Below are positions 30,396 through 62,524 of a stretch of 64,000 bases of DNA, one piece after another (position 1 is the first letter of the stretch; every line of letters starts with the position of its first letter). A program made the translations under genes and the position numbers. Origin of the DNA: a virus; IMG/VR virus record IMGVR_UViG_3300044653_000098, positions 62,001 through 126,000 of that record; one strand, written 5' to 3'. The notes beneath the pieces are model-generated. The model made no database searches, had not been told where the DNA came from, and saw nothing but the letters and a program-made list of their open reading frames with translations.

Positions 30396-32927
30396 GTGAG
30401 CCAACCCACGACTGCGTTTGCGCCGGACTACGGTCTTATCTCCAGCGACGACGAGTTCGAGCAGCTCTGCCAGAAGCTGGTAGAAGATGGTCTGCCCTTC
30501 GGCTTTGACATCGAGACCAGCTATGACGGCGAGCCCCGCGAGGAAGCCCAGCTGCACCCGGAGACTAACTTCGTCTGCGGGCTGAGCTTCACCAATGCCA
30601 CGACCTGGGCCCGGTATGCACCGCTGCGCCACGACTTCGGGTTCAACCTGGACAACAAGCGCGCCGCCGTCGCCTTCTGGCAGGTGGTGCAGACCCGGCT
30701 GGGGATCCCGCACAACGCGAAGTTCGAGCGTCGCTGCCTGTCCCGCTGGTTCATGGAGTACCTGGGCGATCACCCGCTGCTGGGCGCCGCGGTGCGTGCG
30801 GCCTGCGGGTACTTCGACGTCCTGTCCGACACGATGCTGGAATCCTACGTCGAGGCGGCCAACCAGAAGCACGGGCTAAAGGAAATCACCTTCCTCAACT
30901 TCGGCCACAAGATGGCTGAGATCTTCGACCTGTTCCCGCAGCGCCTGACCAAGGGCGGCAAGCCGCGCAAGCTCACGCAGAAGGAACAGAAGAGCATCCG
31001 GTTCAGTGAGCTGGACCAGCACGACCCTAAGGTCATCGCGTACGCCTGCGAGGACTCCCTGTGGGCGCTGGTCCACCACTACCGCCGCTACCCGGTGGTC
31101 AAGGACAACTGGATCTACCAGCTGGAGATGGCGATCCTGCCGATCGCCTGCAAGATGGAGGACCGGGGGGTCCAGTACGACTGGAACTTCCTGCGTGAGG
31201 GAGCAGTGCGCGCCCGGGCGTTCCAGGACAAGCTGGCGCGGGTGATCAACGCTGAGCTGACCAAGCTCGTGCGCGGGATGGACCCGGAAGCCGACGAGGT
31301 TGACATCAACCTCGCCTCCCCGGCGCAGATCTCCGCGGTGCTCTACGACAAGCTCGGGTTCACGACCCGGCGCAAGACCAACAGCGGGAAGAACTCGACC
31401 GACGAGGTCGCGCTGACCGGGCTGGCCAAGTCCTATCCGGTGGTCCAGCGGATCCTGGACTGGAAGTCGCTGAATAAGCTCGCAGGCACCTATCTGGAGG
31501 TCTACGAGGAGCGGTTCAGCTACGCACCTGATGGCAGGGCCCACCCCGGCTGGCTCCAGCATGGGGTGCCGGCCGGCCGGTTCGCGGCCGCGGGGCCGCC
31601 GGTCCAGCAGAGCCCCAAGCACTACCACTACAAGATCACCCGCGAGGAGTGGCAGGAGGCCACCGGCACCGCGGCGGAGCAGGACATTACCTTTGACTTC
31701 AACTTCCGCGATGCGATCGTCGCCCCGCAGGGCTACTACCTGATCGGGTTCGACTACAAGAACATGGAGCTGCGGGTTCTGGCCGGCGAGGCCCAGGAGC
31801 CCGCGCTGCTGGAGGCGTTCGGCCGAGGCGAGGACGTCCACATGCTGACCGCCACGCTCATGCTCGGGCGCCCGGCGGCCCAGATCGCCAAGGACGACCG
31901 GGACAAGTTCGGCAAGATCATGAACTTCGCCCTGTCCTATCAGATGGGTGTTGACGGCCTGTCCCAGCGTCTCGGTGTCAGCAAGGACGAAGCTCAGGCT
32001 TTGTTCGATCAGTATTTTTCTGCCTACACCCGGATCAAGGCGTACATGGACCAGACCGTGGCCAGCGCCAAGGCGCTCGGCTACATCACCACCCGGTTCG
32101 GCCGGAAGGTGAAGATCTGGGAGTTCCTGAGCAATGAGCGGTGGATCTACGCCGCCGGGGAGCGCCTGGCTGGGAACGCGCCGATCCAGGGCGCCGGGAC
32201 CGGGGACTACCCGAAGATCGCCATGGTGCGCGCTGAGGCGGCTCTGCAGCAGGCTGGGCTGGCGGACTCGGCCGAGCTGGTCATGAACATGCACGACGCC
32301 CTGTACTGGTACGTGAAGGCCGACGTGGCCCCGGCCGACGTTATTCGCGTCCTGCAGCCCGCGGTTGTCTTCCCGGTTGAGGGCTGGCCGCCTATCGAGG
32401 TCGAGTGGTGCGCCGGGTACCGGTGGGGATCAATGAAGGACTTGGAGGTGCTGCCAGATGGCTCTGTACGGATCGCCGGAGCAGAGGAGCCAGCAGTCGG
32501 AGTACGTGAACCGGCTGGAGTACCTGAGCAAGATGAACCAGCCGCTGAGCCAGTCGGAGCGCGAGTGGCGGTTCCAGAGCCGGCGGTGGCCAGCGCTGCT
32601 CCTGCTGTGCTCGCTGGGCCTGCTCGCAGCCCTGACCCTGGCCTACCTGCTCTGGACACTGCGCCCCGCACTGTGATCGTCACGCTCGAACGTCAGCCCG
32701 AGGTCTTGGCCTGGACGGGTTTCTGCGGCTGGTTGCAGAGCGATGAGATGGCCGGGAGCAACCGGGTGATCGTGCGTGTGCCCGCGGGAGAAGTGGAGCT
32801 GGATATGCGGTGCAAGCTCGACCCGGCGTGGCAGCCTAATGTGTCCCTGCTCTTCGGCGGGGCGGTGGTCAACTACGCTCCTGATAGCGTCGATACAGGA
32901 GCCCTGGCCGCCGGACTGAGCCTTTAG
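30396..32927 (+). CDS. polA: Family A DNA polymerase with 3'-5' exonuclease domain and an odd C-terminal extension
   Basis: An 843-residue open frame. Residues ~1-220 are a DnaQ-like exonuclease (FDIETS, NAKFERR, YACEDSL). Residues ~230-685 are the polymerase domain: motif A DYKNMELRVLA, motif B KIMNFALSYQMG, motif C MHDAL (HDA where HDE is usual). The family normally ends near residue 690. Here about 150 more residues follow: an Ala/Pro linker and a compact ~80-residue domain. A separate membrane-protein gene sits in another frame inside the linker, and a GTG at 32673 could start the last domain as its own protein. Confidence 0.85.
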   Translation: MSQPTTAFAPDYGLISSDDEFEQLCQKLVEDGLPFGFDIETSYDGEPREEAQLHPETNFVCGLSFTNATTWARYAPLRHDFGFNLDNKRAAVAFWQVVQTRLGIPHNAKFERRCLSRWFMEYLGDHPLLGAAVRAACGYFDVLSDTMLESYVEAANQKHGLKEITFLNFGHKMAEIFDLFPQRLTKGGKPRKLTQKEQKSIRFSELDQHDPKVIAYACEDSLWALVHHYRRYPVVKDNWIYQLEMAILPIACKMEDRGVQYDWNFLREGAVRARAFQDKLARVINAELTKLVRGMDPEADEVDINLASPAQISAVLYDKLGFTTRRKTNSGKNSTDEVALTGLAKSYPVVQRILDWKSLNKLAGTYLEVYEERFSYAPDGRAHPGWLQHGVPAGRFAAAGPPVQQSPKHYHYKITREEWQEATGTAAEQDITFDFNFRDAIVAPQGYYLIGFDYKNMELRVLAGEAQEPALLEAFGRGEDVHMLTATLMLGRPAAQIAKDDRDKFGKIMNFALSYQMGVDGLSQRLGVSKDEAQALFDQYFSAYTRIKAYMDQTVASAKALGYITTRFGRKVKIWEFLSNERWIYAAGERLAGNAPIQGAGTGDYPKIAMVRAEAALQQAGLADSAELVMNMHDALYWYVKADVAPADVIRVLQPAVVFPVEGWPPIEVEWCAGYRWGSMKDLEVLPDGSVRIAGAEEPAVGVREPAGVPEQDEPAAEPVGARVAVPEPAVASAAPAVLAGPARSPDPGLPALDTAPRTVIVTLERQPEVLAWTGFCGWLQSDEMAGSNRVIVRVPAGEVELDMRCKLDPAWQPNVSLLFGGAVVNYAPDSVDTGALAAGLSL
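32458..32676 (+). CDS. Small membrane protein embedded in the 3' end of the polymerase frame
   Basis: A 72-residue protein with a polar N-terminus (many Gln, Ser, Glu) and a strong hydrophobic helix (residues ~46-66, LLLLCSLGLLAALTLAYLL). GGAGGT lies 7 bases before the ATG. It is read one base shifted relative to the polymerase. In this interval the polymerase frame gives only Ala/Pro-rich linker, which suggests that this frame is the selected one. Its stop overlaps a GTG (32673) in the polymerase frame. Confidence 0.55.
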   Translation: MALYGSPEQRSQQSEYVNRLEYLSKMNQPLSQSEREWRFQSRRWPALLLLCSLGLLAALTLAYLLWTLRPAL

Positions 32928-46229: not shown

Positions 46230-46417
46230 AAGACCGCAGCAAGATTGTCTACTGCACCATGGACAGCTCTCAGTGGCTGATCCTGATCCCGCCCGCAGGC
46301 TTGGTGTCCCCTCCGGTGATAACCCTGCATCAGTCATTTGTCGGGCCCGTGGAGTTCTACCACGCCTCGGCCTACAACATCCCGGTGCCCGACGACGCTA
46401 AGGCGGCCGCGAAATGA
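46226..46417 (+). CDS. Short unknown protein
   Basis: A 63-residue protein with mixed strands, no motif recognised. ATGA overlaps on both sides couple it to the glycosyltransferase and to the radical SAM gene. Confidence 0.5.
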   Translation: MKDRSKIVYCTMDSSQWLILIPPAGLVSPPVITLHQSFVGPVEFYHASAYNIPVPDDAKAAAK

Positions 46418-49365
46418 CCAGTCCTGCGTCCGTCCAGAGCTGGCTCGACCAGACCGCCTACAAGATGGACCTGAGCTGCCAGTACCTCGGGGATGAGCCG
46501 AACACCCTGAACCGGGACTGGGACTCCGCCACGCTGCGGTGGCTCATGTGCGCGAGCTGGCCCTATGAGCATGCGGCCGGCAACCAGTCGATCCCCTACG
46601 TCGCCAAGGCGGTCACTGATGCTTCCCCGCATTATCTGTGCGACCGGTTCTACCTGCCTGCGACGCCACGCGATATGCGACTTCTGGAGCGCGGGGGCGT
46701 GCCCGTATTCGGTATCGAATCAAAGCACCAGCTCAGTGACTTTGACGTGGTGGGAACCTCTATCTCCTACCTTGTTCTGCTGATGAACTTCGCCAAGATG
46801 CTGACCATGAGCGGGATTCCGCTGCGGTGGCGCGAGCGGGAGGACGACCCCGGCGCCTACCCCATGGTCATCATCGGCGGCCAGGCGTTCAGCGCCCCTG
46901 CTGCGATGGAGCCGATCGCGGATTGCATCTGGCTGGGCGAGGCCGACACCGAGCCCGGCAACGGCGGGATGGCCGCGGTGTGCCGGAGGATCGAGGAGTT
47001 CAAGGCCGACGGCTCCTGGCGGCAGGACCGGATCGGGTGCTACCGCGAGCTGGCGCTGGAGTTCGGGTACCTGCACTTCCCGCGGTTCGTGAAGACGCAC
47101 TACCGGTACGAGGACCGCGGCCTGCCGCAGCCCTCGAAGGTGGTTGCGGGCTATGAGTCCCTGCTGCCGGGCATGACCTTCCCCCGGCGCTCGCGCCGGG
47201 TCCGCGACATGAACGCCATCTCCCCGCTGACCGCCGCGCCGCTGCTGTACTCCGACCCCGCGCTCGGCGCCGGGGACATGGAAGTCGCCCGCGGCTGCCC
47301 GGCGTGGTGCAGCTTCTGCCGGCTGAGCTGGCTGACCAAGCCGTACCGCCAGCGGGACGTCGCCTTGTCCGTCGAGCACGCTGCTCAGTGGCACCGCGCC
47401 ATGGGTGCGGTCGAGCTGAGCCCGTTCGCCCCGGACTTCCCGATGCACACGCAGCGCCAGCTGCTGATCAAGCAGTTGCTGGAGCAGGTCAACGACGAGG
47501 CCGACGCGGTGGCCATGCGCATTGACGACGCCATCGCGGACAAGGGCGTTTACATCCAGCTCCAGGCCCTCGGCGGGATGGACGCGATCACCCTCGGCCT
47601 GGAGGGCAACTCCCAGCGCATGCGTGACCTCGTCGGCAAGGGCACCTCCGACAACGAGGTGATCGAGGCGGTCCGGCAGGGGATCCAGGCTGGCCTGCGC
47701 AAGTTCAAGCTCTTCATGATCACCAACCTGCCCGGCGAGGAGAAGGGCGACGTCCTGCGGATCGTCCGGCTGGGCGAGCAGCTGGCCGCGGTCCGCGACG
47801 AGCTGGGGCAGCCAAACGTCCAGATCCAGTTCAGCTGGACTCCGCTGCTCATCGAGATGGGCACGCCGTTCCAGTGGTTCGCCGTGACCCACGCCGACCA
47901 CACGCTGATCAAGATCGCTGAGTTCTTCCGCGACCTGAAGATCGCCTTCAAGATCGGGACCAAGGCCGAGCCCAACAAGGTGGCATTCTTCCAGCTGTGC
48001 CAGCGAGCCTCCGCCGAGGTGGGCGAGGCGATCGTGGACGTCATGGAGGAGATGGACATCGCCTGCTGGGGTGGTGTGCCCCGCGGCGATCCAGGCAAGC
48101 GCAACGGGATGAAGGACCGGCTGGAGGACGCCCTGATCGCCCACGGCTTCCTCAACGGTTTCGATGACTGCTTTGACGAGCGTCGCCTGCGTGACCTGTT
48201 CGGCGCCGAGTACATCGACACCGGGGTGCCCCGCCGGCTGCTGTGGAGCACCTATCTCCAGATGGTGGAGTTCCTGGAGCAGACGGACGCCGACACCTAC
48301 GACGACCTGCTCGACCCGGCCTACCGCGGCAACGAGTGGGTCGGCCGGTGCGACACCGCCTGCCAGGGCAATTCCTGCGGAGTGTGCTCACGCAGTGACT
48401 TGGAGTTGCGACGGGACTACATCAGTGCTGCGAAGAATGAGCTGACCACCGGCCTAGCGGGGGTCCGGCCGATCGACCAGTCTTCGGTGGTCATGCGCAT
48501 CCGGCTCCGGCTGGTCCGGAGCGAGAAGTACCGCTTCGTCGGCAACGACCACTGGCGGTTCGCGGTCCGGCGCGCGGCCTACCAGGCCGCCTACGCCATG
48601 GCCAACACGCTGCCTTCCGGCTTCTCGATAGCCAAGCGCACCATCCGCTTCGCCAGCGATAGGTTCGGCAGCCAGGGGCTGGCGGGCACCGACTACGTCG
48701 AGTTCGGGATCACCCGCGAGCTGGATGACTGGCAGCTGCACGCGTTCGTTGCCGGGATGTCAGCTCTTCTGGACCGGTGGGTGTCGGTGATCGAGGAGAG
48801 CCGGACCCAGCTGCCCCCGGTGGCCGGGGAGCTGCGCAAGGACGCGGATGTCAGCTTCTGCTCTATGACCCTGGCAGCGAGCCCTGACGTGGCCGCTGCG
48901 CGCCTCGCAGCCTGGGGCCGGGCAGAGACCGTGCCCATGATCCTGCGCCATCCTGGGGTCTACTTCGGGCTCGCCGCCGAGGAGGTCGACGCCCGCGAGT
49001 TCGTGGACGACATGTGGGTGGCTGCCACCGGCAACAAGCTCGAACTCAAGATGTTCACCCGCGGGGAGCCGGGGCCCTACCAGCTGATGTCGACGCTCAT
49101 GGGCAAAAAGAGCTGGATCGAGGCCATGGCTCACCCGGCGTGGCGGCATGACTTCTTCCTGCCTGGCGCGACCGGGCTGGCTGCCATCCAGGGCGACATG
49201 CTGGCGGCCGCCTGCACGGAGTGCGGGCTGCCAGTGCCATACGGCGCCGACGGCCAGCCGTGGCTGCGCGCAGACCTCAGCGACTCCCTCGACATCTGCC
49301 CGCGGTGTCTCGATGAGCGCCATGGCCGGGTGCTCGCGGGCCTGCCCCGCCTCGCGGCCGTATAA
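46414..49365 (+). CDS. B12-binding-type radical SAM protein with C-terminal DUF2344-like domain
   Basis: A 983-residue protein. Residues ~110-185 resemble a B12-binding Rossmann fold (VVGTSISYLVLLMNFAK, VIIGGQAFSAPAAM). Near residue 295, ARGCPAWCSFCR is the radical SAM Cx3Cx2C iron-sulfur motif. Residues ~690-800 (RIRLRLVRSEKYRFVG, ...LPSGFSIAKRTIRFASD) resemble the DUF2344 domain linked to such enzymes in actinobacteria. CTECG and CPRC close the protein, probably a zinc ribbon. It likely performs radical chemistry on RNA, DNA or a sugar; the substrate is unknown. Confidence 0.75.
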   Translation: MTSPASVQSWLDQTAYKMDLSCQYLGDEPNTLNRDWDSATLRWLMCASWPYEHAAGNQSIPYVAKAVTDASPHYLCDRFYLPATPRDMRLLERGGVPVFGIESKHQLSDFDVVGTSISYLVLLMNFAKMLTMSGIPLRWREREDDPGAYPMVIIGGQAFSAPAAMEPIADCIWLGEADTEPGNGGMAAVCRRIEEFKADGSWRQDRIGCYRELALEFGYLHFPRFVKTHYRYEDRGLPQPSKVVAGYESLLPGMTFPRRSRRVRDMNAISPLTAAPLLYSDPALGAGDMEVARGCPAWCSFCRLSWLTKPYRQRDVALSVEHAAQWHRAMGAVELSPFAPDFPMHTQRQLLIKQLLEQVNDEADAVAMRIDDAIADKGVYIQLQALGGMDAITLGLEGNSQRMRDLVGKGTSDNEVIEAVRQGIQAGLRKFKLFMITNLPGEEKGDVLRIVRLGEQLAAVRDELGQPNVQIQFSWTPLLIEMGTPFQWFAVTHADHTLIKIAEFFRDLKIAFKIGTKAEPNKVAFFQLCQRASAEVGEAIVDVMEEMDIACWGGVPRGDPGKRNGMKDRLEDALIAHGFLNGFDDCFDERRLRDLFGAEYIDTGVPRRLLWSTYLQMVEFLEQTDADTYDDLLDPAYRGNEWVGRCDTACQGNSCGVCSRSDLELRRDYISAAKNELTTGLAGVRPIDQSSVVMRIRLRLVRSEKYRFVGNDHWRFAVRRAAYQAAYAMANTLPSGFSIAKRTIRFASDRFGSQGLAGTDYVEFGITRELDDWQLHAFVAGMSALLDRWVSVIEESRTQLPPVAGELRKDADVSFCSMTLAASPDVAAARLAAWGRAETVPMILRHPGVYFGLAAEEVDAREFVDDMWVAATGNKLELKMFTRGEPGPYQLMSTLMGKKSWIEAMAHPAWRHDFFLPGATGLAAIQGDMLAAACTECGLPVPYGADGQPWLRADLSDSLDICPRCLDERHGRVLAGLPRLAAV

Positions 49366-57048: not shown

Positions 57049-57073
57049 TGAAGCCCTGCACCGTAACAGGTGC

Positions 57074-57310
57074 ATGCCAAGAGGATGGGATCCCGCGTAC
57101 GACCCGTTCGGCGGGTACCGGGCAACCCGGTCGTTCCTGGGTGTCCGGATCAGCGACAAGACTTTCTCAGACGACTCGATCGACAAGATCCTGAAGGACG
57201 GCAAGGACCCGAAGAAGGTGCTCGGCAAAAAGATGAAAGAGCTGAGCATCAAGGACAAGCAGAAGCTGATCAGGCGTATCGAGGCCCGTGAGAAAAAGAG
57301 AAACCAGTGA
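57074..57310 (+). CDS. Short lysine-rich protein
   Basis: A 78-residue protein with a Tyr/Pro-rich start (WDPAYDPFGGYRATRSF) and a lysine-rich helical tail. Highly basic; may bind nucleic acid or be a small virion protein. Unknown. Last protein gene before the tRNA array. Confidence 0.55.
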   Translation: MPRGWDPAYDPFGGYRATRSFLGVRISDKTFSDDSIDKILKDGKDPKKVLGKKMKELSIKDKQKLIRRIEAREKKRNQ

Positions 57311-57342
57311 GGAAGAGATGATCTTACGCAGGGGGAGACCCA

Positions 57343-57423
57343 GCCCCCGTAGCCCAAAACACCAAGAGGCAGAGGCGCCGCTTTAAAACCGGTCGAGTGT
57401 GGGTTCGAGCCCCACCGGGGGCA
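57343..57423 (+). tRNA. trnL(uaa): tRNA-Leu (anticodon UAA), enlarged D-loop
   Basis: Acceptor GCCCCCG/CGGGGGC, anticodon loop TTTAAAA, T-arm GTGGG TTCGAGC CCCAC, and CCA encoded at 57424-57426. The variable loop is short, unlike normal bacterial tRNA-Leu. The D-loop is about 8 bases longer than usual. There is a C-C mismatch at the top of the anticodon stem. It lies before the array promoter. Confidence 0.7.
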
Positions 57424-57460
57424 CCAGATGGAAGTTCTGCAAGATGGTCCGGAAAAAGAG

Positions 57461-57489
57461 TTGACACGGGTCTACCGGCATCGTAAGGT
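57461..57489 (+). promoter_or_regulatory. tRNA-array promoter with TTGACACGGGTCTACC box
   Basis: TTGACA at 57461-57466, 17-base spacer, TAAGGT at 57484-57489. The box TTGACACGGGTCTACC is identical over 16 bases to that at 25320-25335. Confidence 0.75.
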
Positions 57490-57611
57490 GGGTACATGAT
57501 GCAACGCAGGTACTCAGAGCAGCGGAATCAGGATGGGCATTTTGCCATCCCGTGCCCCGCCATGCTGGGGACCAGCGAGGTGGCTTCTGGGTAGAGGAAG
57601 ATCAAGCTCGG

Positions 57612-57649
57612 AAGCCGCCCGCAGGGACAGAAGCCCTCGCGGGCGGTTT
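57612..57649 (+). terminator. Hairpin between array promoter and second tRNA
   Basis: AAGCCGCCCGC (57612-57622) pairs with GCGGGCGGTTT (57639-57649), and the inner AGGG/CCCT lengthens the stem. It ends with a short T-run, like an intrinsic terminator or attenuator. Confidence 0.65.
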
Positions 57650-57666
57650 GCGTTACAGCTGAACAT

Positions 57667-57737
57667 GGGGAGCAGGCGACGGCTGCCGGCGGGATTCCAA
57701 ACCCCGCGACGAGTGGGTTCGACTCCTACGCACCCTG
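57667..57737 (+). tRNA. trnW(cca): tRNA-Trp-like (anticodon CCA), degenerate
   Basis: Anticodon loop TTCCAAA, T-arm GTGGG TTCGACT CCTAC. The acceptor GGGGAGC/GCACCCT has one A-A mismatch and one G-T pair, and the D-arm is irregular. Length 71. Possibly functional, possibly decaying. Confidence 0.55.
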
Positions 57738-57896
57738 CGGAGCACCACCCTGAAGGCTGGGGTGAACGTGCCAGCAGATTGATAACTCAACAGCGTGAGC
57801 ATCGCCCAGGGCGCCATCCCTGGGCACAAGCTCCCCCGTCCGCGCCTGCGCTCAGGTCTTCCTGGGTCACCATCGGGCACGGCCGGGGGAGATCAT
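57738..57896. other. Array spacer with hairpins, no gene seen
   Basis: About 160 bases without a T-arm or reading frame. GCCCAGGG/CCCTGGGC (57804-57811 and 57818-57825) is a perfect hairpin. CTCCCCCG and CGGGGGAG near the two ends could also pair. Smaller spacers at 59587-59683, 61129-61216 and 61435-61520 likewise show hairpins but no gene. Confidence 0.5.
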
Positions 57897-57968
57897 GGGG
57901 ATGAGAAGCTGAGGTAGCGACCGCGCCCTGCAAGCGTTGGTGACTCGGTTCGATTCCGAGCATCTCCA
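57897..57968 (+). tRNA. trnA(ugc): tRNA-Ala (anticodon UGC), C33
   Basis: Acceptor GGGGATG/CATCTCC contains the G3-U70 pair that identifies alanine tRNAs. The anticodon loop is CCTGCAA, read as UGC with C at position 33, and the T-arm is CTCGG TTCGATT CCGAG. The D-arm is short and irregular. A Cys (GCA) reading would break the anticodon stem. Confidence 0.65.
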
Positions 57969-58047
57969 CGAGACCGCCGCTTGGGGAACAGCTGGGATGG
58001 CCTGGTACCGGGCGTTACCCCCAGACCTGAAACGGAGCGGCGGCAGA

Positions 58048-58122
58048 CTGGGTATAGCTCAGGTTGGTCAGAGCGCGCGGTCCGGGGCCGCGAGGCCGCT
58101 GGTTCAAATCCAGCTACTCAGA
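58048..58122 (+). tRNA. trnP(cgg): tRNA-Pro (anticodon CGG), C33
   Basis: Acceptor CTGGGTA/TACTCAG, anticodon stem CGCGG/CCGCG with loop TCCGGGG, T-arm GCTGG TTCAAAT CCAGC. C replaces U at position 33. Its 3' end abuts the 3' half of the permuted tRNA. Confidence 0.8.
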
Positions 58123-58124
58123 CC

Positions 58125-58258
58125 GGGGGGAGATGCGGGTTCGAGTCCCGCCCTGTCCGTGAAAACTCTCCGCGGTGGCCGATCTGCAGGCGGCTGGCCG
58201 GCCAGGGCCCTGGTCAGGAGAGGGACAGGTAGTCCAATTGGCAGGACGCCCCCTACAT
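58125..58258 (+). tRNA. Candidate circularly permuted tRNA (3' half before 5' half)
   Basis: The 3' half comes first: GGGGG (58126-58130), a T-arm GCGGG TTCGAGT CCCGC (58135-58151) and acceptor strand CCTGTCC (58152-58158). The 5' half follows at 58223-58258: acceptor GGACAGG (58223-58229), D-arm GTCC/GGAC, and CCCCC (58249-58253). The acceptor strands pair 7/7 and the anticodon-stem strands 5/5. The 64-base link also pairs, CTCTCC (58166-58171) with GGAGAG (58217-58222), extending the acceptor helix. Neither half has another partner nearby. The anticodon cannot be assigned because the loop is broken between the halves. Confidence 0.6.
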
Positions 58259-58382
58259 TTTCTGGTGCGGCTTACCACGATCCGGCTGGGGTTCGGGAGA
58301 AGAACGTCCGGGAGGTCGAGCGCAATACGCGGGCGCAGTTCCGCGCAAACGGCGGCCGGATGCTGTGGGAGCACCAGAACAA

Positions 58383-58454
58383 CGGGATGTCGCGTAAGGG
58401 TTAGCGCGCCTGGTTTGGGACCAGGCAGTCAAGGTTCGAGTCCTTGTATCCCGA
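58383..58454 (+). tRNA. trnP(ugg): tRNA-Pro (anticodon UGG)
   Basis: Acceptor CGGGATG/TATCCCG, anticodon stem CCTGG/CCAGG with loop TTTGGGA, T-arm CAAGG TTCGAGT CCTTG, and CCA encoded at 58455-58457. Canonical U33. Confidence 0.85.
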
Positions 58455-58524
58455 CCAGCGGCCAGGATGTTCACCGTGTCCTGGTGCAGCGGAGGCTCGT
58501 TAGGGAGCACCCAACGGTGACGGC

Positions 58525-58597
58525 GGGTCTGTAGCTCAGACGGGAGAGCGGTCCCCTGAAAAGGGACAGGTGGAGGATTCGATCGCCTCCGGGCCCA
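58525..58597 (+). tRNA. trnF(gaa): tRNA-Phe (anticodon GAA)
   Basis: Acceptor GGGTCTG/CGGGCCC with wobble pairs, anticodon stem GTCCC/GGGAC with loop CTGAAAA, T-arm GAGGA TTCGATC GCCTC with one mismatch. Confidence 0.75.
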
Positions 58598-58615
58598 CGC
58601 TGTAGCAGGTAGCCC

Positions 58616-58687
58616 GCCGCACTAACACAATGGCTAGTGTGTCTGTCTTCCAAGCAGAGAATGCGAGTTCGATTCTCGCGTGCGGCT
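58616..58687 (+). tRNA. trnG(ucc): tRNA-Gly (anticodon UCC)
   Basis: Acceptor GCCGCAC/GTGCGGC, D-stem ACAC/GTGT, anticodon stem TCTGT/GCAGA with loop CTTCCAA, T-arm GCGAG TTCGATT CTCGC. Confidence 0.85.
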
Positions 58688-58792
58688 CGGTGACGAGCAG
58701 AGCTGAAACCTCTGTGATCGCGCAAGTGGCTGGCAGGCCACGGCCGGGCAGGCTCTGGGGGACTGCCATCTCGCAGGGGTGCCCGGTTCTGA

Positions 58793-58865
58793 GTGCCGCT
58801 AGCACAACGGTTACTGCACCTGACTCTTAATCAGGGGGTTCTCGGTTCGAGTCCGAGGCGGCGCA
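58793..58865 (+). tRNA. trnK(cuu): tRNA-Lys (anticodon CUU)
   Basis: Acceptor GTGCCGC/GCGGCGC, anticodon stem CCTGA/TCAGG with loop CTCTTAA, T-arm CTCGG TTCGAGT CCGAG. Confidence 0.85.
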
Positions 58866-58866
58866 C

Positions 58867-58942
58867 GGGCGAGTACGTCCAACTGGCAGAGCGGCCGGCC
58901 TCAAAATCCGCGCGGTTGCGGGTTCGACTCCCGCCTCGCCTA
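58867..58942 (+). tRNA. trnL(caa): tRNA-Leu (anticodon CAA), short variable loop
   Basis: Acceptor GGGCGAG/CTCGCCT, loop CTCAAAA, T-arm GCGGG TTCGACT CCCGC. Anticodon stem has two mismatches. Lacks the long variable arm normal for tRNA-Leu, as does the UAA gene at 57343. Confidence 0.7.
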
Positions 58943-58947
58943 CACGA

Positions 58948-59021
58948 TGGAGCATGGTGGTAATTCGGTATCCCACTGGGCCCTGAACCCAGGGATCCAG
59001 GTTCGAGTCCTGGTGCTCCAG
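58948..59021 (+). tRNA. trnQ(cug): tRNA-Gln (anticodon CUG), C33
   Basis: Acceptor TGGAGCA/TGCTCCA, perfect anticodon stem CTGGG/CCCAG with loop CCCTGAA, T-arm CCAGG TTCGAGT CCTGG. C at position 33. Confidence 0.8.
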
Positions 59022-59120
59022 CTAGTCCTGGCCCGGCTTTCCCTGAATTGACAGGCGACCCCGAAGCGTGACGGCGCATAAGGGGACGGGCACGACGGTG
59101 CGGTCCGGCCGGGACTTCAT

Positions 59121-59192
59121 GCCTCCGTAGCTCAATGGTGGAGCAGTGCCCCCGTAAGGCACAGGCCGCAGGGTCAGTACCTGCCGGAGGCT
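59121..59192 (+). tRNA. trnT(cgu): tRNA-Thr (anticodon CGU), C33
   Basis: Acceptor GCCTCCG/CGGAGGC, anticodon stem GTGCC/GGCAC with loop CCCGTAA, T-arm GCAGG GTCAGTA CCTGC (T-loop departs from TTCRA), CCA encoded at 59193-59195. C33. Confidence 0.8.
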
Positions 59193-59196
59193 CCAT

Positions 59197-59282
59197 GCGC
59201 TCGTGGCGGAATAGGTATACGCGCTAGCCCGAGATGCTAGTGCTCCGCGAGGGGCGTGCGGGTTCGACTCCCGCCGAGCGCA
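59197..59282 (+). tRNA. trnL(gag): tRNA-Leu (anticodon GAG), C33
   Basis: Acceptor GCGCTCG/CGAGCGC, anticodon stem CTAGC/GCTAG with loop CCGAGAT, long variable arm, T-arm GCGGG TTCGACT CCCGC, CCA encoded at 59283-59285. Class II Leu with C33. Confidence 0.8.
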
Positions 59283-59359
59283 CCACGCCGCCGCGCACGG
59301 CTTGCGGCCCGGCTCCTGTAAAGCTGGAGGTCCGGATCGGCACCGGACGGCGGCTCTGC

Positions 59360-59433
59360 TCCGGGATCGGGTTGCCGGCATCCCGACGCGGCTTTGGACC
59401 GCGGTCACGCTGGTTCGAGTCCAGCTCCCGGAA
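59360..59433 (+). tRNA. trnQ(uug): tRNA-Gln (anticodon UUG)
   Basis: Acceptor TCCGGGA/TCCCGGA, anticodon stem CGCGG/CCGCG with loop CTTTGGA, T-arm GCTGG TTCGAGT CCAGC. Confidence 0.85.
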
Positions 59434-59437
59434 CGAT

Positions 59438-59509
59438 GCCTGCCTAGTGATAACGGCAGCACGCGTCCTTGGTAAGGACGTAGACGGAGTTCAATTCTCC
59501 GGGCAGGCT
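59438..59509 (+). tRNA. trnT(ggu): tRNA-Thr (anticodon GGU)
   Basis: Acceptor GCCTGCC/GGCAGGC, anticodon stem CGTCC/GGACG with loop TTGGTAA, T-arm CGGAG TTCAATT CTCCG. Confidence 0.85.
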
Positions 59510-59513
59510 CTGT

Positions 59514-59586
59514 GTGGACGTGGCGAAGCTGGTATCGCATCTGCTTGCCAAGCAGAAGATCGCGGGTTCGATCCCCGTCGTCCACT
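59514..59586 (+). tRNA. trnG(gcc): tRNA-Gly (anticodon GCC)
   Basis: Acceptor GTGGACG/CGTCCAC, anticodon stem TCTGC/GCAGA with loop TTGCCAA, T-arm GCGGG TTCGATC CCCGT. Confidence 0.85.
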
Positions 59587-59683
59587 CTCCGGCTGCGGTG
59601 TTCACCGTGCCAATGCGAAGGGCCCGACAGGTTCGGTAACCCGGATGGATAAGTCTGCTAGGCCAGCAGGCAAACGGTTGAAT

Positions 59684-59767
59684 GTCCCGGTGGCGTAATT
59701 GGTAGCCGCGCACGGCTCAGACCCGTGTGCCTTAACGGGCGTGAGGGTTCGACCCCCTCCTGGGACA
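59684..59767 (+). tRNA. trnL(cag): tRNA-Leu (anticodon CAG)
   Basis: Acceptor GTCCCGG/CTGGGAC, anticodon stem CACGG/CCGTG with loop CTCAGAC, long variable arm, T-arm GAGGG TTCGACC CCCTC. Class II Leu. Confidence 0.85.
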
Positions 59768-59887
59768 CGATCGGAACTCCCTCCCGCCGCGGTTCGCGAA
59801 CGCGGTGATCAGGAGAGCTAAGGGTCTGGCCCCGCGCCCGGCCGGAGGAGTTCACAGTCAATGCGCATGGCAAGCGGGGCGTGACAT

Positions 59888-59961
59888 GGTCTGCGACCAG
59901 CTGGAGGTTGGAGGCGGCCTGCAAAGCCGTCAGCAGCGGGGTTCGATTCCCCGGCGGGCCT
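59888..59961 (+). tRNA. trnC(gca): tRNA-Cys (anticodon GCA)
   Basis: Acceptor GGTCTGC/GCGGGCC with two G-U pairs, D-stem CCA/TGG, anticodon stem GCGGC/GCCGT with loop CTGCAAA, T-arm CGGGG TTCGATT CCCCG. Confidence 0.75.
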
Positions 59962-60102
59962 CTAACAGGCTCCGTCTGCGTGGATTTCGCAGTTCGGGCC
60001 GTTCCCCGGCGGGATGGCATTGGCGGAGGCTGCGGCCGCGCTCAGGAGGGTGCCGAGTGCAATACCCGCGGCGAGAAGGGCTGCTAGAAGTCGGTAGCGC
60101 AT
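59962..60102 (-). CDS. Tiny secreted peptide on the antisense strand of the array
   Basis: A 46-residue frame on the strand opposite to the tRNAs. It begins MRYRLLAALLAAGIALGTLL, a textbook signal peptide with a probable cut after ASANA, and leaves a ~17-residue mature peptide with two cysteines (PNCEIHADGAC). AAAGGTG precedes the ATG. It fills the largest tRNA-free gap in the middle of the array. A secreted or surface peptide is likely if expressed; function unknown. Confidence 0.55.
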   Translation of the reverse strand: MRYRLLAALLAAGIALGTLLSAAAASANAIPPGNGPNCEIHADGAC

Positions 60103-60164
60103 GGTCTTCACCTTTCTGCTGGTAGCTGTCACGGTACGCCTAAGTGATTGTTCTGCACAGGCAT

Positions 60165-60249
60165 GGAGCGGTGGCCGAGCGGCCTATGGCGGTGTCCTGC
60201 TAAGGCACTCACCGGAAACGGTGCGCGGGTTCAAATCCCGCTCGCTCCT
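60165..60249 (+). tRNA. trnS(gcu): tRNA-Ser (anticodon GCU)
   Basis: Acceptor GGAGCGG/TCGCTCC, anticodon stem GTGTC/GGCAC with loop CTGCTAA, long variable arm, T-arm GCGGG TTCAAAT CCCGC. Confidence 0.85.
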
Positions 60250-60252
60250 CTT

Positions 60253-60337
60253 GGAAGGTAGCGCCGAGGATGGCGAACTGGTCCCGAAAACCAGGCCGGG
60301 GTGAGTAGCCCCGAGGGTTCGATTCCTTTACCTTCCT
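60253..60337 (+). tRNA. trnS(cga): tRNA-Ser (anticodon CGA), C33
   Basis: Acceptor GGAAGGT/ACCTTCC, perfect anticodon stem CTGGT/ACCAG with loop CCCGAAA, long variable arm, T-arm GAGGG TTCGATT CCTTT. C33. Confidence 0.8.
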
Positions 60338-60341
60338 CTGA

Positions 60342-60415
60342 CCGCCCCGGCTCAGCCGGTGAAGAGGCCCGTCTGATAAGCGGGTAGTCGCATGGTTCAA
60401 CTCCATGGGGGCGGA
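60342..60415 (+). tRNA. trnI(gau): tRNA-Ile (anticodon GAU)
   Basis: Acceptor CCGCCCC/GGGGCGG, anticodon stem CCCGT/GCGGG with loop CTGATAA, T-arm CATGG TTCAACT CCATG. Confidence 0.85.
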
Positions 60416-60416
60416 C

Positions 60417-60488
60417 TGGCCAGTAGCACAAAGGTAAGTGCACCCGTCTTATAAGCGGGCGATACGGAGTCAAGACCCGGCTGGCCTA
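60417..60488 (+). tRNA. trnI(uau): tRNA-Ile (anticodon UAU), mismatched first pair
   Basis: Acceptor TGGCCAG/CTGGCCT pairs except T1-T72. D-stem GCAC/GTGC, anticodon stem CCCGT/GCGGG with loop CTTATAA, weak T-arm, CCA at 60489-60491. UAU reads AUA directly; bacteria normally use a modified CAU tRNA. Only one base separates it from its upstream neighbour. Confidence 0.75.
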
Positions 60489-60491
60489 CCA

Positions 60492-60564
60492 GCTCCCCGC
60501 GCCCGACTGGACGGGCACCGGACTTTTAATCCGGACTGACTGGGTTCGATTCCTTGGGGGAGCA
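60492..60564 (+). tRNA. trnK(uuu): tRNA-Lys (anticodon UUU)
   Basis: Acceptor GCTCCCC/GGGGAGC, D-stem GCCC/GGGC, anticodon stem CCGGA/TCCGG with loop CTTTTAA, T-arm CTGGG TTCGATT CCTTG. Confidence 0.85.
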
Positions 60565-60569
60565 CGCAA

Positions 60570-60641
60570 GCGTCGCTGGTGTAAAGGAAGCGCGCTCGCC
60601 TTCTAAGCGAGATGGTCTCAGTTCGATTCTGGGGCGACGCA
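60570..60641 (+). tRNA. trnR(ucu): tRNA-Arg (anticodon UCU)
   Basis: Acceptor GCGTCGC/GCGACGC, anticodon stem CTCGC/GCGAG with loop CTTCTAA, T-arm CTCAG TTCGATT CTGGG. Confidence 0.8.
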
Positions 60642-60642
60642 C

Positions 60643-60713
60643 GGCTCGTTAGGTTAACGGCAGACCGCCTGGTTCTCAGCCAGGGAGCAGGGGTTCAATT
60701 CCCCTACGAGCTA
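60643..60713 (+). tRNA. trnE(cuc): tRNA-Glu (anticodon CUC)
   Basis: Acceptor GGCTCGT/ACGAGCT, anticodon stem CCTGG/CCAGG with loop TTCTCAG, T-arm AGGGG TTCAATT CCCCT. Confidence 0.85.
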
Positions 60714-60717
60714 CTTT

Positions 60718-60795
60718 GCCGCTGTTACTCTGATGGTAAGGGGTAGCCGGGTTTTCACCCCGGACACGACGCGGGTTCGAGTCCCGTCAGCGGCT
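60718..60795 (+). tRNA. trnE(uuc): tRNA-Glu (anticodon UUC)
   Basis: Acceptor GCCGCTG/CAGCGGC, anticodon stem CCGGG/CCCGG with loop TTTTCAC, T-arm GCGGG TTCGAGT CCCGT. Confidence 0.8.
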
Positions 60796-60796
60796 C

Positions 60797-60870
60797 TGCG
60801 GACAGCAGCACCGGTCGTGCTGAACGGTCTCATAAGCCGAGATAGCTGGGTTCGACTCCCAGGTCCGCAA
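60797..60870 (+). tRNA. trnM(cau): tRNA-Met (anticodon CAU)
   Basis: Acceptor TGCGGAC/GTCCGCA, D-stem CAGC/GCTG, anticodon loop CTCATAA, T-arm CTGGG TTCGACT CCCAG. The T1-A72 pair argues against an initiator. An Ile (modified CAU) identity cannot be excluded. Confidence 0.8.
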
Positions 60871-60883
60871 CTGTTCAATCTGA

Positions 60884-60957
60884 TCCGGCGTAGCTCAGTC
60901 TGGTAGAGCAGCCGCCCGTTAAGCGGAAGCGCGCAGGTTCGAGCCCTGCCGCCGGAG
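60884..60957 (+). tRNA. trnN(guu): tRNA-Asn (anticodon GUU), C33
   Basis: Acceptor TCCGGCG/CGCCGGA, D-stem GCTC/GAGC, anticodon loop CCGTTAA on a CCGC/GCGG stem, T-arm GCAGG TTCGAGC CCTGC. C33. Confidence 0.8.
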
Positions 60958-60969
60958 CGCAGTAATCAT

Positions 60970-61042
60970 GGTTCTGTAGCTCAGTGGTCAGAGCGTCCGC
61001 CTGTCGAGCGGAGGGCCGCGGGTTCGACTCCCGTCAGGACCG
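60970..61042 (+). tRNA. trnD(guc): tRNA-Asp (anticodon GUC)
   Basis: Acceptor GGTTCTG/CAGGACC, anticodon stem TCCGC/GCGGA with loop CTGTCGA, T-arm GCGGG TTCGACT CCCGT. Confidence 0.85.
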
Positions 61043-61053
61043 CGCATGATAAA

Positions 61054-61125
61054 GGGTGCTTAGCTCAGCGGAAGAGCAGCAGCACGACACGCTGAAGGCC
61101 GCAGGTTCGATCCCTGCAGCGCCCA
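61054..61125 (+). tRNA. trnV(gac): tRNA-Val (anticodon GAC), C33
   Basis: Acceptor GGGTGCT/AGCGCCC, anticodon loop ACGACAC on CAGC/GCTG, T-arm GCAGG TTCGATC CCTGC, CCA at 61126-61128. C33. Confidence 0.8.
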
Positions 61126-61216
61126 CCATGCGCGTTACGCCGGAGAACGGCCGCCCAATACGCGCAGCAGGGGACTGTCGTACAGGCGGAGGAAGTCGGC
61201 TTGGCGGTCCCAACTA

Positions 61217-61288
61217 GCGTCCATCGTTCAACGGATAGGACGGCAGGCTACGGACCTGCTGATGGGAGTTCGAGTCTTCCTGGACGCA
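61217..61288 (+). tRNA. trnR(acg): tRNA-Arg (anticodon ACG)
   Basis: Acceptor GCGTCCA/TGGACGC, anticodon stem GCAGG/CCTGC with loop CTACGGA; A34 would be edited to inosine by the host deaminase. Confidence 0.85.
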
Positions 61289-61289
61289 C

Positions 61290-61361
61290 GGGCCGTTAGC
61301 TCAGCGGCAGAGCGGCGCCCCCACACGGCGCGCAGCGGAGGTTCGAGTCCTCCATGGCCCA
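61290..61361 (+). tRNA. trnV(cac): tRNA-Val (anticodon CAC), C33
   Basis: Acceptor GGGCCGT/ATGGCCC, perfect anticodon stem GCGCC/GGCGC with loop CCCACAC, T-arm GGAGG TTCGAGT CCTCC. C33. Confidence 0.8.
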
Positions 61362-61363
61362 CT

Positions 61364-61434
61364 GAGGGCGAACCGCATGGCGCGGAGGCTGGTTGTGAGC
61401 CAGTCAGCAGCGGGTTCGAATCCCGTCGTCCTCC
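61364..61434 (+). tRNA. trnH(gug): tRNA-His (anticodon GUG)
   Basis: Acceptor GAGGGCG/CGTCCTC, D-stem CCGC/GCGG, anticodon stem GCTGG/CCAGT with loop TTGTGAG, T-arm GCGGG TTCGAAT CCCGT. Position -1 is T rather than the usual G, opposite C73. Confidence 0.75.
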
Positions 61435-61520
61435 CTTTCCCCCGGTCGTAGGGCCGCACCCGGCAGGGTGATCCGGAGAGCCTGTGTCCATCAGGGCGGG
61501 GATCAAAAACTCCGGGCTAT

Positions 61521-61601
61521 GGCGGAGTGACCCGAGATGGCATGGGAGCGGTCTGTAAAACCGTCGCTTCGGCACGGCTGGTTCGATTCCAGCGTCCGCC
61601 A
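61521..61601 (+). tRNA. trnY(gua): tRNA-Tyr (anticodon GUA)
   Basis: Acceptor GGCGGAG/GTCCGCC with one mismatch, anticodon stem GCGGT/ACCGT with loop CTGTAAA, variable arm, T-arm GCTGG TTCGATT CCAGC. Confidence 0.8.
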
Positions 61602-61656
61602 CTCTCCGGGTGCAGGAGCCACACGGCTTGGCCGCCGTGCCTGCCCCGGAGCGTAA

Positions 61657-61728
61657 GCGCCTATCGTTCAGTGGATAGGATCGCGGCCCCCGAAGCCGCA
61701 GACGCTGGTTCGAGTCCAGCTGGGCGCA
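61657..61728 (+). tRNA. trnR(ccg): tRNA-Arg (anticodon CCG), C33
   Basis: Acceptor GCGCCTA/TGGGCGC, perfect anticodon stem GCGGC/GCCGC with loop CCCCGAA, T-arm GCTGG TTCGAGT CCAGC. C33. Confidence 0.8.
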
Positions 61729-61729
61729 C

Positions 61730-61801
61730 TGGCCTGAAGCTCAATGGACGAGCGGTCGCCCCCTAAGCGAACGGCTGCGGGTTCGAGTCCCGTCAGGCCG
61801 G
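61730..61801 (+). tRNA. trnR(ccu): tRNA-Arg (anticodon CCU), C33
   Basis: Acceptor TGGCCTG/CAGGCCG, D-stem GCTC/GAGC, anticodon loop CCCCTAA on TCGC/GCGA, T-arm GCGGG TTCGAGT CCCGT. C33. Last tRNA of the array. Confidence 0.75.
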
Positions 61802-61927
61802 CCACATCGATGCTCACGCTGCGAGTTGTCCTGGTATCCGGTTCGGCGTTTCTTGCCCGTCGTCCTATCCGGCCCGGCCCCGTCCAAGCGCTCCCGCGGA
61901 GATAGCTGTTGTGGCGGGGCCCGGTCG

Positions 61928-61933
61928 TATGAT
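61928..61933 (+). promoter_or_regulatory. TATGAT -10 box before the right-end genes
   Basis: TATGAT is a near-consensus -10 in the 215-base gap after the array. No clear -35 is seen 17 bases upstream. It would drive the genes from 62017 on. Confidence 0.5.
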
Positions 61934-61949
61934 AGAGTTGCTTTCGTAA

Positions 61950-61988
61950 CCGCCCGGACCTGCCTATCAGTGCGACGCAGCCGGGCGG
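61950..61988 (+). terminator. Hairpin in the leader of the right-end genes
   Basis: CCGCCCGG (61950-61957) pairs with CCGGGCGG (61981-61988), followed by CGCTTTTCC. It may end array transcripts, or attenuate the promoter at 61928. Confidence 0.5.
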
Positions 61989-62016
61989 ACCGCTTTTCCG
62001 GGCCGATGAGCCGGCC

Positions 62017-62511
62017 ATGGACCTGTCCGGCGCCACCCTGGCTGAGCTGAACGCCGAGCTGATCACGCGCACCGCCCCGGTCGAGTCGCTCGACCGGCTG
62101 TTTGCGTTGCCTGATTGGGTGACCGACCCGGATCTGTGCAACTCCTACGAGGTGCTGGTCGCCCGGCTCCGGAGAGAGACCGACCACCTGCCCCTGAACA
62201 CGCTCCAGCAGATGAGGATCGAGCGGATCGTCTTCAACTACATCGTGCTGAAGTTCAGGGAGTCTCACGCGGGCAGCGACCACCAGTTCACGGACCACCT
62301 CAAGGACTGGAACACCTACTGGGCCTCGATCACCCGGGAGTTCGACGCGGTGCTGCGCGCCTGGCAGCCCAAAGAGCAGGACGCGATCATGCACATGGTG
62401 AAGCTGGCCGTCGAAGAGGTGATCGCGACGATCGAGGACACCGGGGTGCGCAATGACCTCGTGCGGAGGTTCCCCGACACCTTCAAGCGCATGGGCCTGA
62501 TCAGCGCCTGA
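62017..62511 (+). CDS. Phage protein, possibly terminase small subunit
   Basis: A 164-residue helical protein (LPLNTLQQMRIERIVFNYIVLKFRE; WNTYWASITREFDAVLRA). Size, helical content and position at the head of what seems the late region recall small terminase subunits of large actinophages, but there is no recognised DNA-binding motif. The ATG has no strong ribosome site. Confidence 0.5.
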   Translation: MDLSGATLAELNAELITRTAPVESLDRLFALPDWVTDPDLCNSYEVLVARLRRETDHLPLNTLQQMRIERIVFNYIVLKFRESHAGSDHQFTDHLKDWNTYWASITREFDAVLRAWQPKEQDAIMHMVKLAVEEVIATIEDTGVRNDLVRRFPDTFKRMGLISA

Positions 62512-62524
62512 CGAAGTATCGTGC

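What the first reader, a model, noticed from the sequence alone, without database searches (positions are those of the whole stretch)
57897..61801. Eleven tRNAs carry C33 in place of the near-universal U33
With the anticodon stems fixed by pairing, Ala-UGC, Pro-CGG, Gln-CUG, Thr-CGU, Leu-GAG, Ser-CGA, Asn-GUU, Val-GAC, Val-CAC, Arg-CCG and Arg-CCU all have C at position 33; the other 24 normal tRNAs keep U33. U33 makes the U-turn and is recognised by many anticodon nucleases. Phage tRNAs that escape host anticodon nucleases through anticodon-loop changes have been reported in mycobacteriophages. A systematic U33C change in a third of one array would be a strong new case, or alternatively a sign of decay.
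Basis: partly seen in the sequence, partly recalled or inferred. Interest (0 to 1): 0.85.

Follow-up and report, generated by a model that had tools for sequence, protein, structure and literature searches.

The report
Phage tRNAs swap U-turn U for C
A group of related phages, this one included, carries many otherwise intact tRNA genes in which a nearly universal U that bends the anticodon loop is written as C, and it is open whether such tRNAs are simply tolerated, protect the phage, or are corrected at the RNA level.

Summary
In detail: ARAGORN places C at position 33 in 10 of 30 array tRNAs, and the four C33 Rfam alignments shown agree; the eleventh, Ala-UGC, is sub-threshold. Background is much lower: 12 of 444 unselected viral tRNAs, 8 of 100 at high GC. 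It is not decay: stems pair, changes at 33 are only to C, and U54, U55, C56 and A58 hold in 29 or 30 of 30. It is a clade trait: eight phages grouped by DNA polymerase (support 89/93) have 19-37% C33, 73 of 268; four relatives outside have 0-11%. Unrelated C33-rich arrays exist. C33-rich arrays also carry more C at position 55, the T-loop U-turn (22/600 against 7/853), with no excess at 54, 8 or 32; the window itself has none. C33 is not enriched in published anticodon-nuclease targets. Best reading: working tRNAs in which cytidine may replace the U-turn uridine; the driver is unknown. Nuclease escape is unsupported, not refuted. RNA editing is the boldest open reading; no PF00383 deaminase was found in five lineage phages.

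The parts
57897..57970 (+). Ala-UGC-like tRNA, C33 by eye (loop CCTGCAA)
   Evidence: RF00005 18.9 bits, below gathering 29; not called by ARAGORN
58048..58124 (+). tRNA-Pro(CGG), loop TCCGGGG, C33 at 58082
   Evidence: ARAGORN, 5 stem pairs; RF00005 53.6 bits; C33 kept in sister phage G001
58948..59022 (+). tRNA-Gln(CUG), loop CCCTGAA, C33 at 58982
   Evidence: RF00005 32.7 bits; identical in G001
59121..59195 (+). tRNA-Thr(CGU), loop CCCGTAA, C33 at 59152; odd T-loop (G54, G58)
   Evidence: RF00005 53.1 bits
59197..59285 (+). tRNA-Leu(GAG), loop CCGAGAT, C33 at 59230
   Evidence: RF00005 55 bits, alignment shows C in the U33 column
60253..60338 (+). tRNA-Ser(CGA), loop CCCGAAA, C33 at 60284
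   Evidence: only a weak tRNA-Sec match in Rfam (31.2 bits); in G001 the Ser-CGA gene is 64% identical with the same loop
60884..60958 (+). tRNA-Asn(GUU), loop CCGTTAA, C33 at 60917
   Evidence: RF00005 58.4 bits, alignment; G001 has U33 in a 60% identical Asn gene
61054..61128 (+). tRNA-Val(GAC), loop ACGACAC, C33 at 61085
   Evidence: RF00005 56.5 bits, alignment; Val-GAC is the commonest C33 tRNA in the cell sample
61290..61362 (+). tRNA-Val(CAC), loop CCCACAC, C33 at 61321
   Evidence: RF00005 56.4 bits, alignment
61657..61729 (+). tRNA-Arg(CCG), loop CCCCGAA, C33 at 61689
   Evidence: RF00005 53.2 bits
61730..61804 (+). tRNA-Arg(CCU), loop CCCCTAA, C33 at 61761
   Evidence: RF00005 46.6 bits; stem changed but loop kept in G001
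58048..61804 (+). array of 30 ARAGORN tRNAs (20 with U33)
46414..49365 (+). radical SAM protein of the clade (983 aa); considered as an RNA-modifying helper, not supported as the general cause
   Evidence: PF19864 + PF04055, TIGR03960 155 bits under its cut-off of 462; distribution
30396..32927 (+). DNA polymerase I used to define the phage clade

Best explanation
The C33 genes are working tRNAs, not remnants. In this phage clade, and in some unrelated C33-rich arrays, the uridine that makes a U-turn may be replaced by cytidine, a swap that in a riboswitch U-turn keeps the structure through N3 protonation. It is frequent at position 33 of the anticodon loop and, in the C33-rich arrays as a group, slightly raised at position 55 of the T-loop. 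Shown: the sequence pattern, its clade distribution, the lack of a like excess at positions 54, 8 and 32, largely intact stems, and U/C toggling between homologues. Inferred: that the C33 tRNAs are charged and decode, and that the need for uridine is relaxed or reversed because these tRNAs only supplement the host set, with tolerance depending on isoacceptor. What makes the clade differ from its C33-free relatives is not known.
For: C33 in 10 of 30 window tRNAs and 11 of 30 in the sister phage; all eight phages of the polymerase group 19-37%, 73 of 268. C/(C+U) in 28 C33-rich against 45 C33-poor arrays: position 33, 161/615 against 28/869; 55, 22/600 against 7/853 (p = 1.8e-4; against 3/338 in high-GC poor arrays, p = 0.01); 54, 2/585 against 6/832; 8, 2/315 against 0/416; free pyrimidine 32, 0.70 against 0.69. 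Of 27 C55 tRNAs, 12 are in the clade of eight and 15 in other rich arrays. In 76 homologous pairs at least 80% identical, 33 differs in 13, always U/C. Isoacceptors with C33 are non-random (0 of 2000 shuffles); purine 35 favours C33 (76/231 against 54/264, p = 0.002). C33 tRNAs read codons as common as U33 ones do (median 24.6 against 19.4 per mille, p = 0.42). The C-for-U swap in a U-turn: PMC6061696 (abstract passage).
Against: No expression, charging or decoding data. The window has no C55, so the T-loop part rests on other arrays, and 5 of the clade's 12 C55 are in one phage, G164. Other loop positions are also more variable in rich arrays (anticodon loop apart from 33 and the anticodon 42/313 against 6/120; T-loop 98/736 against 20/280), so a wider relaxation is not excluded. 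In C33/C33 pairs 6 of 19 anticodon-stem changes gain or lose a pair, against 8 of 50 in U33/U33 pairs. C33 fraction correlates with GC (rho 0.39). C33 and C55 are not linked within a tRNA. Many rich arrays were found with a C33 pattern that favours type-I tRNAs such as Val, which also tilts the isoacceptor table; the six relatives with arrays chosen by polymerase alone give 32 of 183, modestly above high-GC viral contigs (p = 0.03), and two of the six have none.
Confidence: 0.55

Rival explanations
1. Anticodon-nuclease escape: hosts carry nucleases that cut 3' of U33 (PrrC/RloC type) or read U33, and C33 makes phage tRNAs poor substrates while they still decode.
For: PrrC cleaves 3' of U33 and RloC also cuts there, with a broad substrate range led by tRNA-Glu (PMC2610378 passages); Glu is C33 in 15 of 30 in rich arrays (p = 0.004, picked after seeing the table). 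Escape by anticodon-loop changes is proposed for mycobacteriophages (PMC10264068, results section), and T5 tRNA-Lys resists AriB through anticodon-stem changes (PMC12409363 passages). Which isoacceptors carry C33 differs from phage to phage.
Against: No enrichment in published targets (29/106 against 101/389; PrrC/RloC 53/180 against 77/315). Lys 4/28, Tyr 0/13, Trp 0/13 are low. C55 rises in C33-rich arrays although it lies outside the anticodon loop. Mycobacteriophage LRRHood has 2 of 26, both Val; T5 0 of 21.
Confidence: 0.2
2. GC-driven drift under relaxed constraint: phage tRNAs are weakly selected and T-to-C pressure in GC-rich genomes fills position 33, with no benefit.
For: C33 fraction correlates with GC (rho 0.39); the relatives with GC 0.45-0.49 have 0 of 42; viral contigs below GC 0.45 have 4 of 286 against 8 of 100 at 0.58 or more. 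Other loop sites are also looser in rich arrays.
Against: High-GC arrays with no C33: Magritte 0/26, Nonomuraea plasmid 0/35, Tsukamurella plasmid 0/22, Dennebes 0/22. C at free pyrimidine 32 is the same in rich and poor arrays, and U54 and U8 show no excess C, so pressure alone does not choose 33.
Confidence: 0.15
3. RNA editing: genomic C33 and C55 are turned into U by a deaminase after transcription.
For: Precedents: C-to-U editing at base 8 of 30 tRNA species in Methanopyrus kandleri (PMC3695527, abstract in listing) and C32-to-pseudouridine by TrcP in Vibrio cholerae tRNA-Tyr (PMC9553926 passages). In rich arrays the excess of C is at the two U-turn uridines and not at 54 or 8.
Against: No PF00383 deaminase in G000, G001, G152, G157, G158; it is present in unrelated C33-rich G155 but also in C33-free Dennebes. 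No deaminase named among 49 G000 proteins scanned with Pfam. Host enzymes and TrcP-type domains were not tested.
Confidence: 0.06
4. Decay: the C33 genes are pseudogenes.
For: Ala-UGC (57897) scores poorly, Ser-CGA misses RF00005 and Gln-CUG is weak; the one tRNA with G54 and G58, Thr-CGU, is a C33 tRNA.
Against: All ten are called by ARAGORN with 4-5 stem pairs; changes at 33 are only to C; other T-loop invariants kept; seven of the eight C33 isoacceptors shared with the sister phage are 83-100% identical there (Ser-CGA 64%).
Confidence: 0.04

Closest known systems
Anticodon-loop-altered mycobacteriophage tRNAs (van den Berg et al. 2023, PMC10264068)
   Same: Phage tRNA arrays of actinobacterial type with unusual anticodon loops
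   Different: That work rests on changes at known cleavage or recognition sites of particular nucleases; here one position changes to one base across many isoacceptors. The one Bxz1-type phage checked here, LRRHood, has it only in two Val tRNAs. Its supplementary tables were not seen
tRNA array units of actinobacterial plasmids and phages (PMC5966550, PMC12803027)
   Same: Dense arrays on mobile DNA; the 2026 paper notes differences in the 'anticodon domain' (section 3.1 read)
   Different: 'U33' occurs in neither text; 'position 33' was searched only in the 2026 paper and is absent. The five plasmid arrays checked here have 0-14% C33
Cellular tRNA-Val(GAC) with C33
   Same: Natural C33 tRNA in several phyla (74 of 131 C33 tRNAs in the capped cell sample)
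   Different: In that sample C33 is mostly Val (92/131) and Ala (15/131); in the viral C33 sample Val is 37/202
Methanopyrus tRNAs edited C-to-U at base 8 (PMC3695527)
   Same: A conserved tRNA uridine written as C in many genes of one genome
   Different: Different position, archaeon, known editing; no editing evidence here

Membership tests
Nuclease-escape phage tRNAs | Phage-encoded tRNA | tested here: met
   Array in a 141,724-base virus record
Nuclease-escape phage tRNAs | Change falls on tRNAs that known nucleases target | tested here: not met
   29/106 against 101/389 and 53/180 against 77/315; nucleases of other hosts than the unknown true one
Nuclease-escape phage tRNAs | Host carries a matching nuclease | not testable with these tools
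   Host unknown
Nuclease-escape phage tRNAs | Altered tRNA resists cleavage | not testable with these tools
   Needs biochemistry
Pseudo-tRNAs | Broken stems or random base at invariant sites | tested here: not met
   C33 pairs show somewhat more stem-pair losses or gains than U33 pairs (6/19 against 8/50)
C-to-U edited tRNAs | Genomic C at a conserved U in many tRNAs | tested here: met
C-to-U edited tRNAs | A tRNA cytidine deaminase at hand | tested here: inconclusive
   No PF00383 in five lineage phages; TrcP-type and host enzymes not tested
C-to-U edited tRNAs | Edited base in mature RNA | not testable with these tools
   Needs RNA
Cytidine U-turn tRNAs (proposed) | U-to-C excess at both U-turn uridines but not at U54 or U8 | tested here: met
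   Rich arrays as a group; at 55 small (22/600 against 7/853), and not seen in the window's own array

The most novel reading that the evidence does not exclude
These phages, or their hosts, have an RNA-level or chemical means that makes cytidine serve as the U-turn base: either C33 and C55 are edited to U (or pseudouridine) after transcription, or the host cell favours protonated-cytosine U-turns. The tRNA genes then look mutated while the mature RNAs work, perhaps hidden from nucleases that read the uridine.
Probability: 0.08. Interest if true: 0.9.

Novelty: new variant of a known kind. Interest (0 to 1): 0.62.

Why it matters
U33 is among the most conserved bases of tRNA. A phage clade in which about a quarter of tRNAs have C33, with a small matching rise at the T-loop U-turn in C33-rich arrays, is a natural experiment on what the U-turn uridine is for, and nuclease escape, decoding tolerance and RNA editing can be told apart by simple RNA measurements. 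It also warns that anticodon-loop changes in phage tRNAs need not be nuclease escape.

Tried and rejected
Val-GAC remoulding: C33 tRNAs of the window are not recent copies of one C33 ancestor; best in-array identity is 0.77 or less. Codon supply: C33 and U33 tRNAs read equally used codons. tRNA repair: RtcB in none of five lineage phages, but in C33-rich G155 and in C33-free Big4 and Pumpernickel; Rnl2-type ligase above cut-off only in BRock, with a sub-threshold T5 match; Jay2Jay and Magritte carry annotated RNA ligases that these two models did not ring on: not informative. Radical SAM protein (46414-49365): present in all nine lineage records with C33 and in G170 (one tRNA match), absent from G166, G167, Magritte and the 27-kb fragment G168, but also absent from all ten unrelated C33-rich records searched, so rejected as the general cause. 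Fast anticodon stems as a sign of an arms race: no slower in C33-poor arrays (0.293 against 0.233). RecA as a probe for relatives gave four loci at 25-36% identity. Megablast of 55000-64000 against named phages: no match. Scan of 56900-62200: no promoter-like site; 5 terminator-like against 2.6 expected. Positions 8 and 14 were partly misregistered and were replaced by the stricter test (position 8 only).

Rows dropped before counts: tRNAs whose anticodon call is not three letters, loops not of 7 bases, or under 3 or 4 stem pairs; arrays with fewer than 10 tRNAs or sharing 30% identical genes with another; in T-loop counts, tRNAs without G53, C56 and C61 (one search has no such filter); letters other than C and U in the ratios. 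Rich arrays include a few cellular loci (L285, L298, L383, L391). Collection scans stopped at 120 rows, so they are samples of unknown order. The 1,206 total is my transcription of the table, summed. In one search VapC5's second target, initiator tRNA, was left out of the target set.

Papers: PMC10264068 abstract and results section; PMC12803027 passages and section 3.1; passages only of PMC12409363, PMC10287673, PMC7033543, PMC6459853, PMC11555353, PMC2610378, PMC6061696, PMC3711424, PMC11231383, PMC13015707, PMC9553926; PMC3695527 abstract in a listing; PMC5966550 term search only, no passage. I found no paper reporting C33-rich phage arrays in the searches; that library lacks most subscription journals. 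Recalled, from no call: that U33 and position 55 are the two U-turn uridines, the N3-phosphate contact and the purine-35 partner, needs of anticodon-modifying enzymes for U33, and U33's near-universality.


Full report
WHAT IS THERE. The window is bases 62001-126000 of a 141,724-base virus record. Its array at 58048-61804 has 30 tRNAs by ARAGORN, 10 with C33 and 20 with U33. Rfam RF00005 finds 28 tRNAs above its gathering score there, 26 of the 30 and two more; nine of the ten C33 tRNAs are among them, and the four C33 alignments that were printed put C in the U33 column. Ala-UGC at 57897 is a sub-threshold hit. Megablast of 55000-64000 finds no named phage; the best-covering polymerase match in the phage collection is Microbacterium phage Magritte, 35% identical. 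The host is unknown; an actinobacterium is likely from GC content and this kinship (inference).

HOW UNUSUAL. In 116 viral loci sampled with a U33 pattern, leaving out the tRNAs that fit the pattern, 12 of 444 tRNAs are C33: 8 of 100 in contigs of GC 0.58 or more, 0 of 58 at 0.45-0.58, 4 of 286 below 0.45. In 148 Actinomycetes genomes the same type-I pattern gives 21 C33 matches in 18 genomes, 11 of the 21 with a loop I read as Ala-GGC and 5 as Val-GAC, against about 1,206 U33 matches; the pattern covers only part of all tRNAs. In a capped cell sample C33 is mostly Val: 92 of 131 C33 tRNAs in 120 loci, 74 of them Val-GAC. Named arrays: Magritte 0/26, T5 0/21, Pumpernickel 0/18, Dennebes 0/22, Big4 0/28, BRock 0/25, JonJames 0/7, Jay2Jay 1/13 in the part counted (Val-GAC), LRRHood 2/26 (both Val); plasmids of Tsukamurella 0/22, Mycobacterium intracellulare 0/26, Nonomuraea 0/35, Mycolicibacterium 4/30, Bifidobacterium longum 3/21.

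NOT DECAY. In the window U54 departs in 1 of 30, U55 and C56 in 0, A58 in 1, the 53-61 pair in 1, but U33 in 10, always to C. The tRNA with odd 54 and 58 is Thr-CGU, itself C33. The sister phage G001 keeps C33 in eight of these isoacceptors and has three others (Phe, Ile-UAU, Asp); seven of the eight are 83-100% identical, Ser-CGA only 64% but with the same loop; its Phe gene is 88% identical with C33 in place of U33 and a re-paired stem; its Asn gene (60%) has U33. C33 tRNAs read common codons.

A CLADE TRAIT. Polymerase relatives were found first among C33-rich contigs and then by polymerase alone. Array counts: window 10/30, G001 11/30, G152 7/37, G157 10/33, G158 7/33, G164 10/37, G165 8/33, G169 10/35; G163 4/36; G166 0/22, G167 0/20; Magritte 0/26. 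G168, a 27-kb fragment, has no tRNA match and G170 one. In the tree the first eight form one group with support 89/93, under the program's star level; the six without the window and G001 have 100/100; the root is a midpoint for drawing. The six arrays chosen by polymerase alone give 32 of 183, p = 0.03 against 8 of 100 in high-GC viral contigs. Unrelated C33-rich arrays exist: G153 13/37, G154 9/40, G155 10/37, and the Trebonia locus L298 5/14. No polymerase match was found in G153, G154, G156, G159, G160 or G161, and a 27% match in G155.

WHICH TRNAS. In 24 rich arrays (130 C33 of 495 tRNAs) the isoacceptors are non-random: Val 19/28, Glu 15/30, Asn 8/19, Thr 15/37, Ala 8/20, Ser 11/30, Pro 10/31; Tyr 0/13, Trp 0/13, Arg-ACG 0/11, Ser-GCT 0/9, Met 1/24, Phe 1/15. 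The scan pattern that found many of these arrays favours type-I tRNAs, which the shuffle does not correct for. Between homologues at least 80% identical, 33 differs in 13 of 76 pairs, always U/C, against 8 at position 32, 3 at 37 and 12 at 38. In C33-poor arrays it differs in 1 of 40 pairs, in rich ones in 27 of 105; other loop positions are also looser in the rich ones.

THE SECOND U-TURN. In the clade of eight, C55 is 12 of 268 against 3 of 305 in 13 high-GC arrays with under 10% C33. This was noticed while testing for general T-to-C drift, then tested on all arrays: C55 27/666 in 31 rich arrays (14 of them) against 7/861 in 45 poor ones (5 of them); 12 of the 27 are in the clade of eight, 5 of those in G164. 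With one uniform filter (28 rich, 45 poor), C/(C+U): position 33, 161/615 against 28/869; 55, 22/600 against 7/853; 54, 2/585 against 6/832; 8, 2/315 against 0/416; 32, 415/593 against 583/846; 60, 93/567 against 112/815. C33 and C55 fractions correlate across 89 arrays (rho 0.37, p = 3e-4), C33 and GC too (rho 0.39), and C33 and C55 are not linked within a tRNA. The window itself has no C55. The effect at 55 is small and needs an independent sample.

MECHANISM. Position 33 closes the anticodon U-turn and 55 the T-loop U-turn (recalled). In a riboswitch U-turn a C can replace U through N3 protonation (PMC6061696, abstract passage). The joint change therefore points to the U-turn rather than to one nuclease. 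Why this clade allows or favours it is open: relaxed selection with GC pressure, partial nuclease escape, or correction at the RNA level. No PF00383 deaminase was found in five lineage phages; it is in unrelated C33-rich G155 and in C33-free Dennebes. None of 49 G000 proteins scanned with Pfam has a match named as a deaminase or pseudouridine synthase. The clade's radical SAM protein does not track C33 outside the clade.

VERDICT. Observation confirmed; the nuclease-escape reading is not supported but not refuted; the result is a new variant of a known kind (phage tRNA arrays), with an unexpected U-turn signature.

Noticed in passing
window 46414-49365: A 983-aa radical SAM protein (Radical_SAM_N2 + Radical_SAM, weak TIGR03960), 50-55% identical in G157 and G169, about 8.5 kb upstream of the tRNA array; function unknown.
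   Followed up: partly
L298 (Trebonia kvetii), L324 (Actinomycetes MAG), L335 (Pseudonocardia): tRNA-dense loci in actinobacterial genomes: 5 of 14, 5 of 34 and 1 of 17 tRNAs with C33; possibly mobile elements.
   Followed up: partly
window 59121-59195: tRNA-Thr(CGU) has G54 and G58 in its T-loop, kept in the sister phage.
   Followed up: no
window 57650-57735 and 57330-57430: Further tRNA-like stretches upstream of the array; the first has a weak tRNA-Sec match at 57668-57735, the second I saw by eye only.
   Followed up: no
Actinomycetes genomes G010, G011, G013-G015, G024, G027, G038, G056, G064, G090: A C33 tRNA with loop TCGGCAG (read as Ala-GGC) recurs, 11 of the 21 C33 matches in the class sample.
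   Followed up: no
L017 26553-28184 (Magritte): A Ro-like RNA-binding protein is annotated beside the tRNA array of Magritte.
   Followed up: no
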